From Candidatus Peregrinibacteria bacterium (GTDB lineage Bacteria; Patescibacteriota; Gracilibacteria; UBA1369; LOWO2-01-FULL-3): a DNA stretch of 64,000 bases. The notes under the pieces are model-generated. The model searched no databases and was not told where the DNA came from. It was given only the letters and a program-made list of their open reading frames with translations. The number at the start of each line of letters is the position of its first letter. Within the stretch, counting starts at the first letter, position 1. The DNA lies in assembly GCA_018654255.1 (NCBI GenBank), contig JABILX010000003.1, forward strand, positions 160,074 to 224,073, written 5' to 3'. The translations under genes and the position numbers were made by a program. Shown in pieces: positions 9,959 through 48,005 of this stretch.

Positions 9959-10019
9959 TCAAACCTCCTGCTCAAACAAACAACAGAAGACCTAAACAAA
10001 CGACACAACCACAACGGAT

Positions 10020-11324: not shown

Positions 11325-12966
11325 AACCTGCCCCCTCACGAACAAACAATTCACCATAGATCCAGAAGATCTAGCTTTTTACAAAAAACAAGGAGTCCCA
11401 CCCCCTACCCTCTGCCCGGACGAACGCCAACGCCGCAGACTGATGTTTCGCAACGAACGAAATCTCTACCCACGAAAAGATTCGATGACCGGAGAAACAA
11501 TCATTTCTCGTTGGACAGATGACACCCCATTCCCAGTATACGATTCCAAAAACTGGTGGTCAGACAAATTTGACGGACTAGAATACGGCCAAGATTTCGA
11601 CTTCAACCGCCCATTCTTCGAACAATTCGAAAAACTGCGCAACCGCGTCCCACGAATAGCCCTATACAATTTCGATTCGGTAAACAGTGAATACACAAAC
11701 CACTCAGGCTACAACAAAAACTGCTACATGTGCTTCAACATCGGCAAACTCGAGGACTGCTACTACGTCACAAACTACTCAATAGACAACAAAGACTGCT
11801 GCGACTGCTATGCCATCGAAAGATCCCAACTCCTCTACGAATGCTTCATGTGCGACAACTGCTATTCAAGCAAACATCTAGTAAACTGCAATGGTTGCCG
11901 AGACTCGAACTTCCTCTTTGACTGCAGGAACTGTCAAAATTGTTTCATGTGCTGGAACCTTCGAAGCAAAAAATACTGCATACACAATGAACAAAAATCA
12001 AAAGAAGAATACGAAACATACATGGCCAATCTAGACCTCTCATCTCACCAACAATTCTCCCAACTAGCAAAAGAATTCAAAGACAACATCAAACACAAAG
12101 CCACACACAAAGCAGCCTTCATTACAAAATCAGAAAACTGCACCGGCGACTACATCACAAACTCAAAAAACGCACACATGAGCTATTACGTCATCGACTG
12201 CGAAGACGTAAAATATTGCTACGACATATACGGCGCAAAAGACTGCTACGACTCATACGAACCTGCTTGGAAAGTAGAACGCCTCTACGAAACCCACGCC
12301 TGCAACGAGACACAATTCATGATCGGCTGCGACACATGCATTCGCTCAGCCTTCCTCAACTACTGCGACAACTGCCACAACAGCAAACACCTAACAGGCT
12401 GCATCAGCTTAAAGAAAAATGAATACTGCATCCTCAACAAACAATACACCCGCAAAGAATACGAAGAACTCCTGCCACGCATCAAAGAACACATGATTCG
12501 CACAGGAGAATAGGGAGAATTTTTCCCACATGCACTCGCTCCATTCCCATACAACGATTCAAAAGCCCAAGACTATTATCCACTCACAAAAGAACAAGCC
12601 CTCGAACGCAAATACACCTGGCGCGACAAAGAAGAAAAAGACTACAAGCCAGCAACTCTCGCAGAAATCCCAGACAACATCTCAGACTGCACAGAAAACA
12701 TCACCCAAGAAATACTAACCTGCGAAGAAACTGGCAAAAACTACCGCATAACACCTCAAGAACTCAAATTTTACCACCGCCAAAACATACCAATTCCGCG
12801 TAGACACCCAGACACCAGGTATGAAAACCGCATTCAACTCCGCCACAAACGCCACCTCACAGAACGCACCTGCCCAAACTGCCAAACAAAAGTCCTCTCA
12901 GTATTCAAAGAAACCAATCCAGAAAAAATTCTCTGCGAAAAATGCTATTTAGAGAAAGCATATTAA
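11314..12966 (+). pseudogene. Cys-rich protein interrupted by one in-frame TAG (11314-12513 plus 12514-12966)
   Basis: Same frame continues 150 codons after TAG at 12511-12513: GE*GEFFPHALAPFPYNDSKAQDYYPLTKEQA...CPNCQ...CEKCYLEKAY*. Confidence 0.8.
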
Positions 12967-18929: not shown

Positions 18930-19343
18930 ATGCAAAAACGCAGATTTATAGCTAGGGAAGATGAATTAACAACCTTTGAAGAAGCAGAGACGTTATTGGC
19001 TCAAAATTTACCAGAAACAGACATAGAAACAATCCGAGAAGCAGTAAGGAAAGAATTGTTTCAAGGAGGAGTCCCCCCAACAGAATCAATATACGCAGTC
19101 AAAAGGATGACAGATCGAGCTTCGGTGCTTCGAGAATTCACAAAAGAAGGGGGAAGATTTATAGAGAACAGGAGAGTCGGCGTATTTACAAACAAAGCCA
19201 CGGCCCCAGACAGAAAAGCCTTAAAAGAAAAAGGAATATTAAAACCATCAGAACAAGATCTCCGAGACCACATGAGAGAGCAAATAATAGTAAGAGTACA
19301 AATCTTTCTCAACCCAAAAGCTCCACGCATGAAATTCCATTAA
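18930..19343 (+). CDS. Hypothetical protein, 137 aa
   Basis: ORF with promoter. Confidence 0.7.
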   Translation: MQKRRFIAREDELTTFEEAETLLAQNLPETDIETIREAVRKELFQGGVPPTESIYAVKRMTDRASVLREFTKEGGRFIENRRVGVFTNKATAPDRKALKEKGILKPSEQDLRDHMREQIIVRVQIFLNPKAPRMKFH

Positions 19344-19361
19344 AAAACCCCGTATTGCCGC

Positions 19362-19496
19362 TGAACCTCTAATCTATACCCCGCTAGTTGCAAGGTGGGT
19401 GCCCGCATCTCCAAACCACGGCCTGAAGACATGTAGAGCTCCCTTAGTAGATTTAAGAGAGAGATTTTGAAATCCTGGCGTACAAAACAGAGTCCA
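19362..19496 (-). ncRNA. ssrS: Probable 6S RNA
   Basis: Ends pair: TGGAC-TCT-GTTT-TGTACGCC with GGGGTATA-GATT-AGAGGTTCA; central bubble; apical hairpin; GGGCACCCACCTTG; own promoter TTGATT-N17-TAAAGT at 19530-19502 puts the start at about 19495. Confidence 0.65.
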
Positions 19497-22725: not shown

Positions 22726-23274
22726 ATGAAACCACTACACAAAACAGGCCTTTTCGTTGGACGTTTCCAGCCTTTCCACTTAGGACACTTGGATATTATC
22801 AAAAAAATCCTCAAACAAAACAAACACGTCATCCTAGCAATAGGCAGCGCAGAGAGAAATTACGTTCCCGAAAACCCCCTCACCGCAGGAGAACGAGTCC
22901 TCATCATCGATGAAACTTTAAAAGCAGAAAAAATCAATCCCGCAAAATACACAATCATCCCTATTCGCAACATCGACAATTACGCATTGTGGGTCGACCA
23001 CATGAACCTATACGTCCCGCCATACGACCGCATCTACACAGGATCCCCAATCGTAAAAGCCTGTTACGAAGGCGCCCAATCAAAACACAAACTCGTTAAA
23101 ATCAAGCGCAAACGCCCCGTCTCAGCAACAGAAATCCGCAACTCAATGCTCCAAGGAACAAAAGATTGGCAAAAGCTCGTCCCTCCCCGCACAGCCGAAC
23201 TTCTCGAAAAAATGAAAATCCCTCGCCGCCTCCGCCACATCCAAGAAACAATGAGTGACACAAAATACAAATGA
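22726..23274 (+). CDS. Nicotinamide-nucleotide adenylyltransferase, archaeal NadM-like
   Basis: LFVGRFQPFHLGHLDIIKKIL, ISATEIR-like SATEIRNSML. Confidence 0.88.
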   Translation: MKPLHKTGLFVGRFQPFHLGHLDIIKKILKQNKHVILAIGSAERNYVPENPLTAGERVLIIDETLKAEKINPAKYTIIPIRNIDNYALWVDHMNLYVPPYDRIYTGSPIVKACYEGAQSKHKLVKIKRKRPVSATEIRNSMLQGTKDWQKLVPPRTAELLEKMKIPRRLRHIQETMSDTKYK

Positions 23275-24725
23275 TCAACCCCCTAATTTTCCGCGCCTAC
23301 GACATTCGCGGCATTGCCGACCCAGACGACCCGACCCAAACACCAGATCTCACTGAAGAAACCGTCTACCTAATAGGCAAAGCAACCGCAACATATCTTC
23401 GACAAAAATACAATTCCAAGCATATGGCAGTAGGAGCAGATGTGAGACTTACCAGCCCAAAACTAAAAGAAGCATTTATCAAAGGCATCACCGAATGCGG
23501 AATCAAGACAACTGACATCGGGCTGGCTCCATCCCCAATGGTCTACTTCGCAACCTGCAGTCCAGAGTTCGATTTTGATTGCGGAACAAACATCACGGCC
23601 AGTCACAACCCAAAACCATACAACGGTATCAAAACAGTAGCCAATCTCCCAGGAGAACCAAATACAGCTCATTCTGTCTGCGGTGATGAACTCCAGGAAG
23701 TTTTAAAAATCATCCAAGAAAAAACCTTCACCCCAACCCCAGAACCAACAACCCGAGAAACCCTAGACATCTGGCCAATTTACAAAAAAGAACTACTCAA
23801 ACAAGTCCCAAACCTAGCCCGACCACTCAAAGTTGTAGTCGACGCAGGAAACGGAGTTGCAGGCCCATATATTCCAGAACTCCTCGAGGCTGCCGGCGCA
23901 ACCGTAATTCCATTGTACTGTGAACCAGACGGAACTTTCCCAAACCACGAAGCAAACCCAGAAGAACTTCACAACATGCAAGACCTCATCGCAGAAGTCC
24001 GCGAAAACAAAGCAGACCTCGGAATTGGATTCGATGGCGACAGCGACCGAATAGGAGTCATAGACGAAAAAGGCCACCATTACAGCGCAGACTACCTACT
24101 CTTACTCCTCACCCGCGATCTAATCGACCGAACCAAACAAAACCCCGGCCAAGAAAAGCCAAAAGTCATCACTGACGTAAAATTCTCCCAAGCAATAATA
24201 AATCTAATAGCAGAGCTAGGTGCAGAACCAATAATGTGCAAAGTCGGCCACAGTTTCATTGAAAAAAAAGTCGCCGAAGAAAAAGCCGCATTAGGCGGTG
24301 AAGTTTCAGGACACATGTACTTCGCAGAAGATTATTACGGATTCGATGACGCATTGCTCGCCGCACTAAAAATCCTAGAAACTCTCGCAAAACAAGACCA
24401 GCCCTTCTCAAAACTTTTCAAAGATCTCCCAAAAACATACATGACGCCAGAATACAAAGCATACTGCCCAGACGACAAAAAATTTGAAATAGTAAAAAAC
24501 CTAGTAGACCACTTCACTCCCCTACACGATTGCATCACCCTGGACGGAATACGAATCCACTTCAGCGAAACAGATTGGGGAGCTGTCCGCGCATCAAACA
24601 CCAGCCCAAACCTCACCCTCCGATTCGAAGCCACAACTTCAGAAAAGCTCGCAGAAATAAAACGAGTAATGTACGAAGAGGTAAAAAAATACCCCGAAGT
24701 AGGTTTAGATTGGTTTGAGGAATAG
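23271..24725 (+). CDS. Phosphomannomutase/phosphoglucomutase
   Basis: FRAYDIRGIAD, TASHNPKPYNGIK, GFDGDSDRIGVID. Confidence 0.95.
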   Translation: MINPLIFRAYDIRGIADPDDPTQTPDLTEETVYLIGKATATYLRQKYNSKHMAVGADVRLTSPKLKEAFIKGITECGIKTTDIGLAPSPMVYFATCSPEFDFDCGTNITASHNPKPYNGIKTVANLPGEPNTAHSVCGDELQEVLKIIQEKTFTPTPEPTTRETLDIWPIYKKELLKQVPNLARPLKVVVDAGNGVAGPYIPELLEAAGATVIPLYCEPDGTFPNHEANPEELHNMQDLIAEVRENKADLGIGFDGDSDRIGVIDEKGHHYSADYLLLLLTRDLIDRTKQNPGQEKPKVITDVKFSQAIINLIAELGAEPIMCKVGHSFIEKKVAEEKAALGGEVSGHMYFAEDYYGFDDALLAALKILETLAKQDQPFSKLFKDLPKTYMTPEYKAYCPDDKKFEIVKNLVDHFTPLHDCITLDGIRIHFSETDWGAVRASNTSPNLTLRFEATTSEKLAEIKRVMYEEVKKYPEVGLDWFEE

Positions 24726-24731
24726 GCCCAC

Positions 24732-24787
24732 AAAAAAACCTCCTCCCAACCCGACCCCATACACTTGACGTGCAGAGACCAGGTCGG
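24732..24787 (-). terminator. Hairpin plus G-rich tract and T7, 3' of the small-ORF operon
   Basis: CCGACC...GGTCGG stem with inner TGCAC/GTGTA, then GTTGGGAGGAGGTTTTTTT. Confidence 0.5.
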
Positions 24788-24812
24788 AAGTTGTAGCAAG
24801 TTCGTTCGAACC

Positions 24813-25085
24813 TCAGGTTGAGCAACCCCCCTGGTGAAGCTTGGAAGCTCCAGGTACGAGCGCCAACTGATGAACGGTCGGACGAGGACGCATGCCATCT
24901 TTGTATGCGCCACCGCACTTTGCGATCTGCCTGGCAACCTCATAGGCTGTCTCTTGAACAACCCACCGAGAACACCGCTGAACAGCTCCAGCAGCACGAA
25001 GGCTCCCTTTAACCGTCAGCACACCGACCGCAAACCACACCATGGCGGGTAACGCGAGAGCTTCAGGCACCTTGAGAACCACCAT
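24813..25085 (-). CDS. Small protein, 90 aa, hydrophobic N-terminus
   Basis: SD AGGAGG upstream of ATG (AAGGAGGAGGGGTGATG); atypical GTG/CTG/GCG-rich codon use. Confidence 0.7.
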   Translation of the reverse strand: MVVLKVPEALALPAMVWFAVGVLTVKGSLRAAGAVQRCSRWVVQETAYEVARQIAKCGGAYKDGMRPRPTVHQLALVPGASKLHQGGCST

Positions 25086-25106
25086 CACCCCTCCTCCTTG
25101 TCAGGT

Positions 25107-25235
25107 TCAAAGCCCCAGATAGTCCCGCGCCTCTTCTGCGGCCAAAAGACCACAGGAGACAACCAGACTAGTAGAGGCGAGTCCAAACACCAATCCCATA
25201 CCAAGGACAATCCGCGCTGACCGTCGAAACAGCAT
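25107..25235 (-). CDS. Small protein, 42 aa, TM/lipobox-like (MLFRRSARIVLGMGLVFGLASTSLVVSCGLLAAEEARDYLGL)
   Basis: TAATG stop/start overlap with upstream ORF. Confidence 0.6.
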   Translation of the reverse strand: MLFRRSARIVLGMGLVFGLASTSLVVSCGLLAAEEARDYLGL

Positions 25236-25396
25236 TACGGAAGTCCCACGGTGCGCCTGGCATCCGCGTACTGTCCCACGGCAACGAACGTCCGCAGATC
25301 ACCGCCGAAGCGACGAATCCGCCGGACCGCGCCACAGGAAACGATGAAGACCATCATACCCAGCACACCAACATTGTAAGCACCCTTCTTCAGCAT
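25235..25396 (-). CDS. Small protein, 53 aa, TM/lipobox-like (MLKKGAYNVGVLGMMVFIVSCGAVRRIRRFGGDLRTFVAVGQYADARRTVGLP)
   Basis: Strong SD AAAGGAGGAGAGAGATG. Confidence 0.65.
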   Translation of the reverse strand: MLKKGAYNVGVLGMMVFIVSCGAVRRIRRFGGDLRTFVAVGQYADARRTVGLP

Positions 25397-25511
25397 CTCT
25401 CTCCTCCTTTTTCAATCGCATTACGTAACCCGTAAGTAAAAGAACAAACTCCCTAGAAGAGAGCTCATCCATCTATGAAATAGAAAACGCACCCATCTTC
25501 AAAAGGCACCG

Positions 25512-25540
25512 ATCCTACAACAACCGTACCAACAAGTCAA
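25512..25540 (-). promoter_or_regulatory. Sigma70 promoter of the small-ORF operon
   Basis: TTGACT-N17-TAGGAT on the minus strand. Confidence 0.6.
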
Positions 25541-25552
25541 CCGTTTGTTCCC

Positions 25553-27886
25553 CTACTTCTTCTTCTTCGCACCCTTACCTTCCTTTTTCGCATCCTCCTC
25601 CGGCGCCACAAAAACTTCTTCGCCTTTCTTTTCAGTCACAATCCCTTTCTTTCCACCTTGCTCCTCATTTCGCAAAGGCTTGTCCCAAGACGCAAATTTG
25701 CATTTCGGATAACCACCACATCCCCAGAAGATTTTTCCTCGACGAGTCCTTTTCTCGACCATATCATTCTTTTCACAAGCAGGACATTTAACTCCAGTAC
25801 TATTAGATTTTCCATCCAACGAAACAATCGTTTTACATTTTGGATAAGCAGTACAACCTAGGAATTTACCAAATCGACCATTCCTTATAGCCATATCAGC
25901 CCCACATTTTTCACACTTCTTTCCAGCGTGCTCTTTTTCTAAAACCTCCATCTCAGCATCCTTCACAACATCAGTCACAGAAGAAGCTGGAGTCTCATAT
26001 GGTTTTGCGTTTTTACATTCAGGATAGTCAGTACAAGACAAAAACTTTCCAAAACGTCCAAGCTTCACAGTCATCGGCTTCCCACATTTTTCACAAACCT
26101 CATCTGTCTCCTCTTTAACAATATCTTCCTTCTTAATAGAATCCATTTTCTCCGTCAAATTTTGATGAAAAGGAGCATAGAAATCTTTCATAACAGGAAC
26201 CCATTCCTTTTTTCCTTCGGCAATATCATCGAGCTGTTCTTCCATGTGAGCTGTGAATTTATAATCAACAATATCAGAGAAATGCTCAACCAAAACATCA
26301 GTAACAATGTCCGCAACTTCCGTCGGAACCAATTGTTTTGCATTTTTTTCAATATATCCTCTATTCTGAACGGTAGAAATTGTAGGAGCATAAGTAGACG
26401 GTCTTCCAATCCCCTCTGATTCAAGTTTCTTCACAAGCGACGCCTCTGTATATCTCGCAGGTGGTTTCGTAAAATGTTGTGACGACTCAGTCCCAGCACA
26501 ATCAACATCTTCCTCAACTTCAAGAGCCGGCAAAATCTTATCATCATCATCACCATTCTCTTCATCCTCGTCCTTACCTTCCATATAAACTTTCATGAAC
26601 CCCGGAAACTCTATAGTCTGGCCAGTCGCACCAAAAGACAACCCATCAAAATCAGCCTCCGCACCGCCAGCCGCAACCGGCAAAACAGAAACTTTAACCC
26701 GATTTAACAAAGCCTGCTTCATCTGACAAGCAATAGTCCTTTTCCAAATCAACTCATACAATCTATACAAATCTTTTTCCACACTTCCCTTCACATCCTC
26801 AGGCAAAACCGACAAGTCTACAGGGCGAATAGCTTCATGAGCCTCCTGCGCACCCTTCCTCCCTTTATAATAACGCGGCGTATCCAGTGAAAATTCCGCG
26901 CCAAATTTTTCATTAATAATATCGCGAGCCTGCGTCAAAGCAACATCCGCCAAATTAACCGAATCTGTTCTCATGTAAGTAATCAAACCTCGTTCCCCTC
27001 CACCAATATCAATACCTTCATACAATTTCTGAGCAATAACCATCGTCTTCTTCACAGAAAACCCAAGCTTTCGCGATGCCTCTTGCTGCAAAGTAGAAGT
27101 AATAAATGGAGCGGCAGGATTTCTCTTCACATCCTTTTTCTCAACAGAACCAATCTTATAAGTCGCGTCCTTTAATTTATCGAAAATTTCAGTAGTAATT
27201 TTTTCATTCGCTAATTTTTTTCCATCAGCAGATTTTTCAAGAACAGCTTCAAAATCTTTTCTTCCAAATTGATCAGCTTCTTTTTTGCTAAACTGGCCTT
27301 TGATCTTCCAAAACTCTTCAGGTTTGAAAGCTTTTATTTCTCTCTCCCTCTCAACTACCAAACGTACTGCAACACTCTGCACACGCCCAGCAGAAAGCCC
27401 CTTGCGGACCTTTCTCCAAAGCAAAGGCGAAAGCTCATAACCAACCAATCGATCAAGAACCCTTCGAGCTTGCTGAGCATCAACTAAATTCTGATTGATC
27501 TCACGTGGACTCTCAATAGCCTTCTCAATAGCACCTCTCGTAATCTCATGAAAAACAATCCTCTTCACCGGATTTTTTGCCGCATTTATCTTCAGAGCAG
27601 ACAATAAATGCCACCCAATAGCTTCTCCTTCTCGGTCTTCATCAGTCGCGACCCAAACAACAGTTCCATCTTTCACCTCGTCTTTCAGCATCTTTACTGT
27701 TTTCTTTTTATCAGCAGATATTTCGTATTGAGGCTCAAAATCATTTTCAACATCAACACCAGTCTTTGATTTCGGAAGATCACGAATATGCCCCATCGAC
27801 GCTAGGACCTTGTAATCACTGCCCAAAAACCGCGAAATTGTTTTCGCTTTTGCAGGGGACTCAACTATCACCAAATTCTTCGCCAT
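25553..27886 (-). CDS. topA: DNA topoisomerase I
   Basis: VIVESPAKAKTISRFLG, GLITYMRTDSVN; three C-terminal zinc ribbons. Confidence 0.97.
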   Translation of the reverse strand: MAKNLVIVESPAKAKTISRFLGSDYKVLASMGHIRDLPKSKTGVDVENDFEPQYEISADKKKTVKMLKDEVKDGTVVWVATDEDREGEAIGWHLLSALKINAAKNPVKRIVFHEITRGAIEKAIESPREINQNLVDAQQARRVLDRLVGYELSPLLWRKVRKGLSAGRVQSVAVRLVVEREREIKAFKPEEFWKIKGQFSKKEADQFGRKDFEAVLEKSADGKKLANEKITTEIFDKLKDATYKIGSVEKKDVKRNPAAPFITSTLQQEASRKLGFSVKKTMVIAQKLYEGIDIGGGERGLITYMRTDSVNLADVALTQARDIINEKFGAEFSLDTPRYYKGRKGAQEAHEAIRPVDLSVLPEDVKGSVEKDLYRLYELIWKRTIACQMKQALLNRVKVSVLPVAAGGAEADFDGLSFGATGQTIEFPGFMKVYMEGKDEDEENGDDDDKILPALEVEEDVDCAGTESSQHFTKPPARYTEASLVKKLESEGIGRPSTYAPTISTVQNRGYIEKNAKQLVPTEVADIVTDVLVEHFSDIVDYKFTAHMEEQLDDIAEGKKEWVPVMKDFYAPFHQNLTEKMDSIKKEDIVKEETDEVCEKCGKPMTVKLGRFGKFLSCTDYPECKNAKPYETPASSVTDVVKDAEMEVLEKEHAGKKCEKCGADMAIRNGRFGKFLGCTAYPKCKTIVSLDGKSNSTGVKCPACEKNDMVEKRTRRGKIFWGCGGYPKCKFASWDKPLRNEEQGGKKGIVTEKKGEEVFVAPEEDAKKEGKGAKKKK

Positions 27887-47585: not shown

Positions 47586-48005
47586 TGGTGGAGATGCCGG
47601 GAGTCGAACCCGGGTCTGAAAGGAAACGCTTATAGCCTCTACAATCTTAGTTCCTCTTCGGTTTTCGTCCAAGCGATAAAAGACGAACACAAAACCGCTC
47701 AGCTTATTTCTGTTAATTTTCGAGCACGAGCCCTAGAATAGCGAACACGCACCTTAACCTTCTAATTTACGCCCGCACAACCTAGAAGGTGTCAGAAGTG
47801 AAGACGACTTCCCACAAAGGGGAAGGTAAAAACTAAGCAGCTACAGCTACAGGAGACAAAGGCGCCTCACGTAGGAAAGCAACTGTTAGTTTTTCTTTAA
47901 GTGTATTAGCACTTATTATGCGTTAACTGGATTAAGGACGGACAACGCAACGCCCTGATTGCCACTATAAGTATCTGGCCTTCCATCGAATGCCGATACA
48001 TCCCC
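47586..48005 (-). ncRNA. ssrA: tmRNA, encoded tag ANTLKEKLTVAFLREAPLSPVAVAA
   Basis: 5' GGGGATGTATCGGCATTCGATGG, 3' CCGGGTTCGACTCCCGGCATCTCCACCA; acceptor pairs; TAAGT-GCT resume codon at 47910, TAG at 47833. Confidence 0.96.

What the first reader, a model, noticed from the sequence alone, without database searches (positions are those of the whole stretch)
24732..25540. Foreign-looking transcription unit of three tiny SD-led membrane ORFs
Seen directly: minus-strand promoter TTGACT-N17-TAGGAT, leader, ORFs of 53, 42 and 90 aa, then a hairpin/G-tract/T7 end. The first and third ORFs have full AGGAGG Shine-Dalgarno sites; the first two overlap as TAATG. The island is clearly GC-richer, with CTG/GTG/GCG/CGG codons rare in its neighbours. 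The starts I inspected elsewhere (topA, HU, pheS, efp, dnaN, rny) lack an SD. Two products share a hydrophobic-VSCG motif, lipobox-like. Inference: a recently acquired small-protein module (phage, plasmid or toxin/lysis-like) or a lineage-specific membrane peptide system. No homology is claimed.
Basis: partly seen in the sequence, partly recalled or inferred. Interest (0 to 1): 0.78.

Follow-up and report, generated by a model that had tools for sequence, protein, structure and literature searches.

The report
Foreign operon of tiny lipoprotein-like genes
A small bacterium of the candidate-phyla-radiation type, whose own genes start without the usual ribosome-binding signal, carries a GC-rich mini-operon of three tiny orphan membrane proteins that do have that signal; it looks like one of several gene-sized pieces recently picked up from elsewhere.

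Summary
Minus strand 25540-24732 holds a promoter-like site, a leader, three short ORFs (53, 42, 90 aa) and a strong terminator hairpin with T7. GC (0.58-0.59) is far above window (0.42) and genome (0.40). In shuffles, two AGGAGG-led ORFs or two lipobox ORFs each arise in about 0.15% of cases, both together in 0 of 3000. Codon usage is alien (CGG 4.4% vs 0.2%). Native genes show no Shine-Dalgarno (SD) enrichment (604 genes match shuffles).
The island is not alone: the genome (1.12 of 1.24 Mb examined) has about six other GC-rich, codon-alien islets, nearly all SD-led; the closest relative found of one islet transporter (53%) sits in a similar islet of a distant Parcubacteria genome. Two ORFs have canonical lipoprotein signals, and LspA and Lgt are encoded. 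Relative G017 has the same convergent topA/pgm pair about 150 bp apart without the island.
No homologue turned up in family libraries, phages, plasmids, IMG/VR or GTDB, but not every ORF was searched everywhere. Best reading: a horizontally acquired orphan operon of two small lipoproteins plus a membrane-anchored protein. A phage, toxin or lysis role is unsupported but not excluded.

The parts
25512..25540 (-). Promoter-like site TTGACT-N17-TAGGAT, directly after the topA stop (25553)
   Evidence: 9 of 12 consensus matches; consensus match only
25397..25505 (-). Leader, ordinary GC, with an internal terminator-like hairpin at 25470-25442 (possibly the old topA terminator or an attenuator)
25403..25408 (-). 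Shine-Dalgarno AGGAGG of ORF1
25235..25396 (-). ORF1, 53 aa, basic N-terminus, hydrophobic segment, lipobox IVSC (Cys21), mature part rich in Arg
   Evidence: no family hit
25107..25235 (-). ORF2, 42 aa, coupled to ORF1 by TAATG, lipobox VVSC (Cys28), short acidic mature part
25090..25098 (-). Double Shine-Dalgarno AGGAGGAGG of ORF3
24813..25085 (-). ORF3, 90 aa (91 from GTG 25088), one N-terminal hydrophobic helix and a basic C-terminal part
   Evidence: single-sequence model helix 12-38, mean pLDDT 51, low confidence
24743..24790 (-). Terminator hairpin
   Evidence: 86 nt with the hairpin fold at -34.6 kcal/mol, z -3.5
24732..24738 (-). T7 tract after the hairpin
24739..25338 (.). GC-rich core of the foreign island (GC 0.59)
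   Evidence: C3:184812-185411
23271..24725 (+). Convergent neighbour, phosphomannomutase/phosphoglucomutase-like gene (name inferred, not family-searched)
   Evidence: homologue beside topA in G017
25553..27886 (-).

Best explanation
A recently acquired orphan operon. It inserted into the spacer between the convergent genes topA and pgm of a genome whose own genes do not use Shine-Dalgarno starts, and it brought the start signals and codon usage of an SD-using, higher-GC donor. One transcript runs from just behind topA to the terminator. Ribosomes load at the SD of ORF1, pass to ORF2 by stop-start coupling (TAATG), and load again at the strong SD of ORF3. ORF1 and ORF2 are probably exported, lipid-modified by Lgt, cut by LspA and left as tiny membrane-anchored lipopeptides, one Arg-rich and one acidic; ORF3 is probably a single-pass membrane protein. 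Their most likely role is an accessory envelope function in the recipient. Shown: layout, foreign composition, SD contrast, lipoboxes, presence of LspA and Lgt, an empty spacer in one relative. Inferred: direction of change (insertion), expression, processing, location and function.
For: Layout and statistics. Composition and codons: the three ORFs together score +17.5 for islet over native codon usage; only 5 of 662 matched-length segments of the genome's ORFs reach that, and that set includes the islets themselves. SD contrast. Nine of eleven relatives of the same order with a readable 16S tail keep CCTCC, so the signal could work. LspA and two Lgt homologues. Empty convergent spacer of about 150 bp in G017. 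Sibling islets in the same genome. An exact promoter-leader-SD pattern is found in only 3 of 37 genomes of the class against 223 of 343 other genomes of the phylum, and the single G000 hit is a 37-codon frame outside the islets.
Against: No homologue, so neither reading-frame conservation nor a donor can be shown. ORF2 and ORF3 are codon-anomalous against native genes but score about neutral (-0.08 and +0.01 per codon) between islet and native tables. No terminal inverted repeat, target-site duplication or mobility gene was found at this island. Only one relative was seen with the topA/pgm order, so loss in G017 is formally possible. The genome's own 16S 3' end is missing from the assembly, so its anti-SD is unread.
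Confidence: 0.62

Rival explanations
1. A structured non-coding or regulatory RNA: the GC-rich stretch is a stable RNA and the ORFs are by-products.
For: The 781-nt transcript folds better than 20 shuffles (z -3.9).
Against: No Rfam match above chance, even at permissive threshold; part of the excess comes from the terminator; two SD-led ORFs plus two lipobox ORFs were never seen together in 3000 shuffles.
Confidence: 0.1
2. A small lysis, toxin or bacteriocin-release type module: short lipopeptides that disturb the envelope, working like colicin lysis lipoproteins or entericidin A/B.
For: Two consecutive tiny lipoproteins with opposite charge recall entericidins or lysis lipoproteins (resemblance from memory); size and lipobox fit.
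Against: No hit in Pfam, NCBIfam, PHROGs or PADLOC at E<=1; no bacteriocin gene recognised beside it; neighbours look like housekeeping genes.
Confidence: 0.15
3. Assembly or binning artefact: foreign sequence wrongly joined into the genome.
For: High-GC stretch in a low-GC contig; another islet lies at a contig break (C4/C7).
Against: The island is embedded in a 224-kb contig with intact topA and pgm on both sides; several independent islets lie inside long contigs; a similar pattern occurs in an independent genome.
Confidence: 0.07
4. Native sequence that is merely GC-rich, with de novo ORFs.
For: Promoter and leader have ordinary GC; no donor known.
Against: Genome-wide rarity of such stretches, alien codons and SD use.
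Confidence: 0.06

Closest known systems
Horizontally acquired ORFan islands in bacterial genomes
   Same: GC and codon anomaly, own promoter-like site and terminator, no homologues, spacer position
   Different: Very small, three coupled membrane ORFs, and start signals of a type that the recipient's own genes do not use
GC-rich SD-led islets of Parcubacteria GWA2_40_23
   Same: GC-rich SD-led genes scattered in a low-GC CPR genome; one MFS gene is 53% identical to an islet gene of this genome
   Different: Mostly single larger genes, often behind TTGACA-type promoters close to GGAGG; the three small ORFs were not compared with it directly
Entericidin A/B and colicin lysis lipoproteins (from memory)
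   Same: Tiny lipoprotein precursors of about 40-55 aa, entericidins in tandem
   Different: No detectable sequence relation; no toxin or antidote evidence; third ORF has no counterpart
Integron gene cassettes
   Same: Compact orphan genes of foreign composition
   Different: attC sites and an integrase were not tested for; islets are dispersed; here three genes share one transcript

Membership tests
Bacterial lipoprotein precursors (ORF1, ORF2) | Basic n-region, hydrophobic h-region, lipobox [LVI][ASTVI][GAS]C | tested here: met
   Cys21 and Cys28; two such ORFs in 0.17% of shuffles
Bacterial lipoprotein precursors (ORF1, ORF2) | Processing enzymes Lgt and LspA in the organism | tested here: met
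Bacterial lipoprotein precursors (ORF1, ORF2) | Actual lipidation and membrane location | not testable with these tools
   needs labelling or proteomics
Colicin lysis / entericidin families | Sequence match to the family profiles | tested here: not met
   no family at E<=1
Phage genes | Match in PHROGs, phage genomes or viral contigs | tested here: not met
   ORF2 was too short for the viral-contig scan
Plasmid genes | Match in plasmid records | tested here: not met
   island DNA; ORF1 protein only
Transposon-like element with terminal inverted repeats | Inverted repeats or target duplication at the island edges | tested here: not met
Integron gene cassette | attC recombination site and an integrase | not tested
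   no attC model or integrase search was run
Horizontally acquired island | Composition and codon anomaly | tested here: met
Horizontally acquired island | Absent from the orthologous place in relatives | tested here: inconclusive
   empty in G017, the only relative seen with the same gene order
Horizontally acquired island | Identified donor or homologue elsewhere | tested here: not met
   close-relative searches, not exhaustive
Rfam RNA family | Covariance model match | tested here: not met

The most novel reading that the evidence does not exclude
The island belongs to a pool of SD-led, GC-rich orphan cassettes that circulate among distant CPR bacteria and keep the start signals and codon usage of SD-using, higher-GC cells, perhaps because some products are made in, or aimed at, the partner or host cell rather than in the CPR cell.
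Probability: 0.06. Interest if true: 0.85.

Novelty: new member of a known kind. Interest (0 to 1): 0.45.

Why it matters
It gives a clear marker of recent acquisition in CPR bacteria: a strong Shine-Dalgarno before an alien-codon gene in a lineage whose own genes do not use one. That marker finds the other islets of this genome and could be used to trace gene flow into these reduced genomes. The three orphan membrane peptides are a compact, testable set.

Tried and rejected
Rfam at gathering and permissive thresholds. Family libraries Pfam, PHROGs, NCBIfam, PADLOC and PDB sequences (PDB for ORF3 only). Island DNA against phages and plasmids, ORF3 against phages, ORF1 against plasmids, ORF3 and ORF1 against viral contigs, ORF3 against 85,462 GTDB genomes; ORF2 alone was searched only in family libraries and as part of the DNA query. 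A weak in-genome ORF3 match at C1:191953 (25%, two stops) and four short DNA matches in the class were taken as chance. No terminal inverted repeat or target duplication at this island; no shared boundary motif among G696 islets except promoter-like TTGACA words and an AT-rich TAAATTTA word. Structure of ORF3 without alignment: mean pLDDT 51, not used for a fold search. A promoter-SD pattern search across the phylum (94) proved not specific for islets: other CPR lineages carry it before ordinary genes too. Literature searches (papers read 108-110) gave no description of such islets; the library holds only openly licensed papers.

Full report
Observation. A TTGACT-N17-TAGGAT site (25540-25512) matches 9 of 12 promoter positions. 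A leader of about 110 nt follows, then ORF1 (25396-25235, 53 aa), ORF2 (25235-25107, 42 aa, TAATG overlap) and ORF3 (25085-24813, 90 aa); ORF1 and ORF3 have AGGAGG ahead of their starts. A stem at 24790-24743 followed by T7 closes the unit. The stretch is 0.58-0.59 GC against 0.42 for the window and 0.40 for the genome. The GC-rich core is 24739-25338; promoter and leader are ordinary in GC.

Chance. In 3000 dinucleotide shuffles of the island, two or more AGGAGG-led ORFs of at least 40 aa occur in 0.13%, two or more ORFs with a lipoprotein-type start in 0.17%, and both in none. The criteria were chosen after seeing the island, so these figures are a guide.

SD contrast. Among 604 ATG-start ORFs of at least 150 aa in the genome, the best SD match upstream is distributed as in shuffled sequence. 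The genome's 16S is cut at a contig end. Of eleven relatives whose 16S tail could be read, nine keep CCTCC; G001 has TCTCT there and G013 TCTCC.

Sibling islets. GC, tetranucleotide and codon scans over 1.12 of 1.24 Mb give a short list of alien genes: a secreted 431-aa protein (C1:1180-2475, SD), a 240-aa membrane/Cys-rich protein (C2:229417-230139, SD), an M23/Golvesin_C protein (C2:51523-52593, SD), a BT1/MFS transporter (C9:10111-11355, SD), an MFS transporter split over contig ends C4 and C7 (SD on C4) and a fragment at C7:1-451 whose start is off the contig. Several other high-scoring stretches are low-complexity repeat genes in native codons. The C1 and C9 islets have exact 16-nt inverted repeats on either side; the finding's island has none.

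Outside this genome. The closest relative found of the C7 transporter, 53% identical, lies in Parcubacteria GWA2_40_23, in a gene of about 0.60 GC behind GGAGG next to DNA of about 0.32 GC. In 391 kb of that genome a GC segmentation gives 37 islets of at least 250 bp, most with an SD-led ORF. Of ten islet proteins tested, one matches Pfam above its cut-off (Isochorismatase), one matches weakly, and eight match nothing at E<=0.01. In a stricter ORF test 18 of its 41 high-GC3 ORFs had an SD against 5% of typical ORFs; that list includes antisense frames. Two family relatives had no such genes (G004, 400 kb) or one at a contig end (G018, 344 kb). A promoter-SD pattern occurs in 3 of 37 genomes of the window's class and in 223 of 343 others sampled; elsewhere in CPR it also precedes ordinary genes, so it marks SD use, not islets.

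Place. topA and pgm converge around the island. In G017 the same pair is about 150 bp apart with no island. In most other relatives topA is followed by a different gene. With one comparator, insertion here rather than loss there is inferred from composition.

The products. ORF1 and ORF2 have canonical lipoprotein starts; LspA and two Lgt homologues are encoded. ORF3 has one hydrophobic helix (low-confidence model). No library gave a match. Searches of sequence collections were partial: ORF3 in same-family genomes, phages, viral contigs and GTDB, ORF1 in viral contigs and plasmids (72, 63), the whole island as DNA in phages, plasmids, relatives and the class (12, 13, 8, 19).

Judgement. Recent acquisition of an orphan operon is the best reading. 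Function is inferred only: two small lipopeptides and a membrane-anchored protein with an accessory envelope role. That fits a published observation that novel gene families of Patescibacteria are enriched in transmembrane and signal-peptide proteins (53% against 33% elsewhere; PMC10849945). The codon profile is nearer the islets than the native genes overall, driven by ORF1, and differs from them in CGG, so the donors need not be the same. Wider claims about a circulating cassette pool rest on two genomes and are put under the novel case.

Noticed in passing
L046 (G000:C1) 877-892 and 2565-2580; L091 (G000:C9) 9997-10015 and 11423-11441: Two sibling islets are bracketed by exact or near-exact inverted repeats of 16-19 nt, different in sequence, which could be element ends.
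   Followed up: partly
G696 (Parcubacteria GWA2_40_23), L121-L140: 37 GC-rich islets in 391 kb of a low-GC CPR genome, most with an SD-led ORF, several behind TTGACA-type promoters.
   Followed up: partly
G000 contig ends C4:10407-10708 and C7:60607-61854: One islet MFS gene appears split across two contig ends that share 21 bases; the assembly breaks inside a foreign islet.
   Followed up: partly
L106 (G001 16S rRNA): A same-family relative has TCTCT in place of CCTCC at the 16S 3' end, a possible weakened anti-SD.
   Followed up: no
window 25470-25442: Terminator-like hairpin inside the leader, possibly the old topA terminator or an attenuator.
   Followed up: no
window 47586-48005 and 19343-19496: tmRNA and 6S RNA genes on the minus strand.
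   Followed up: no
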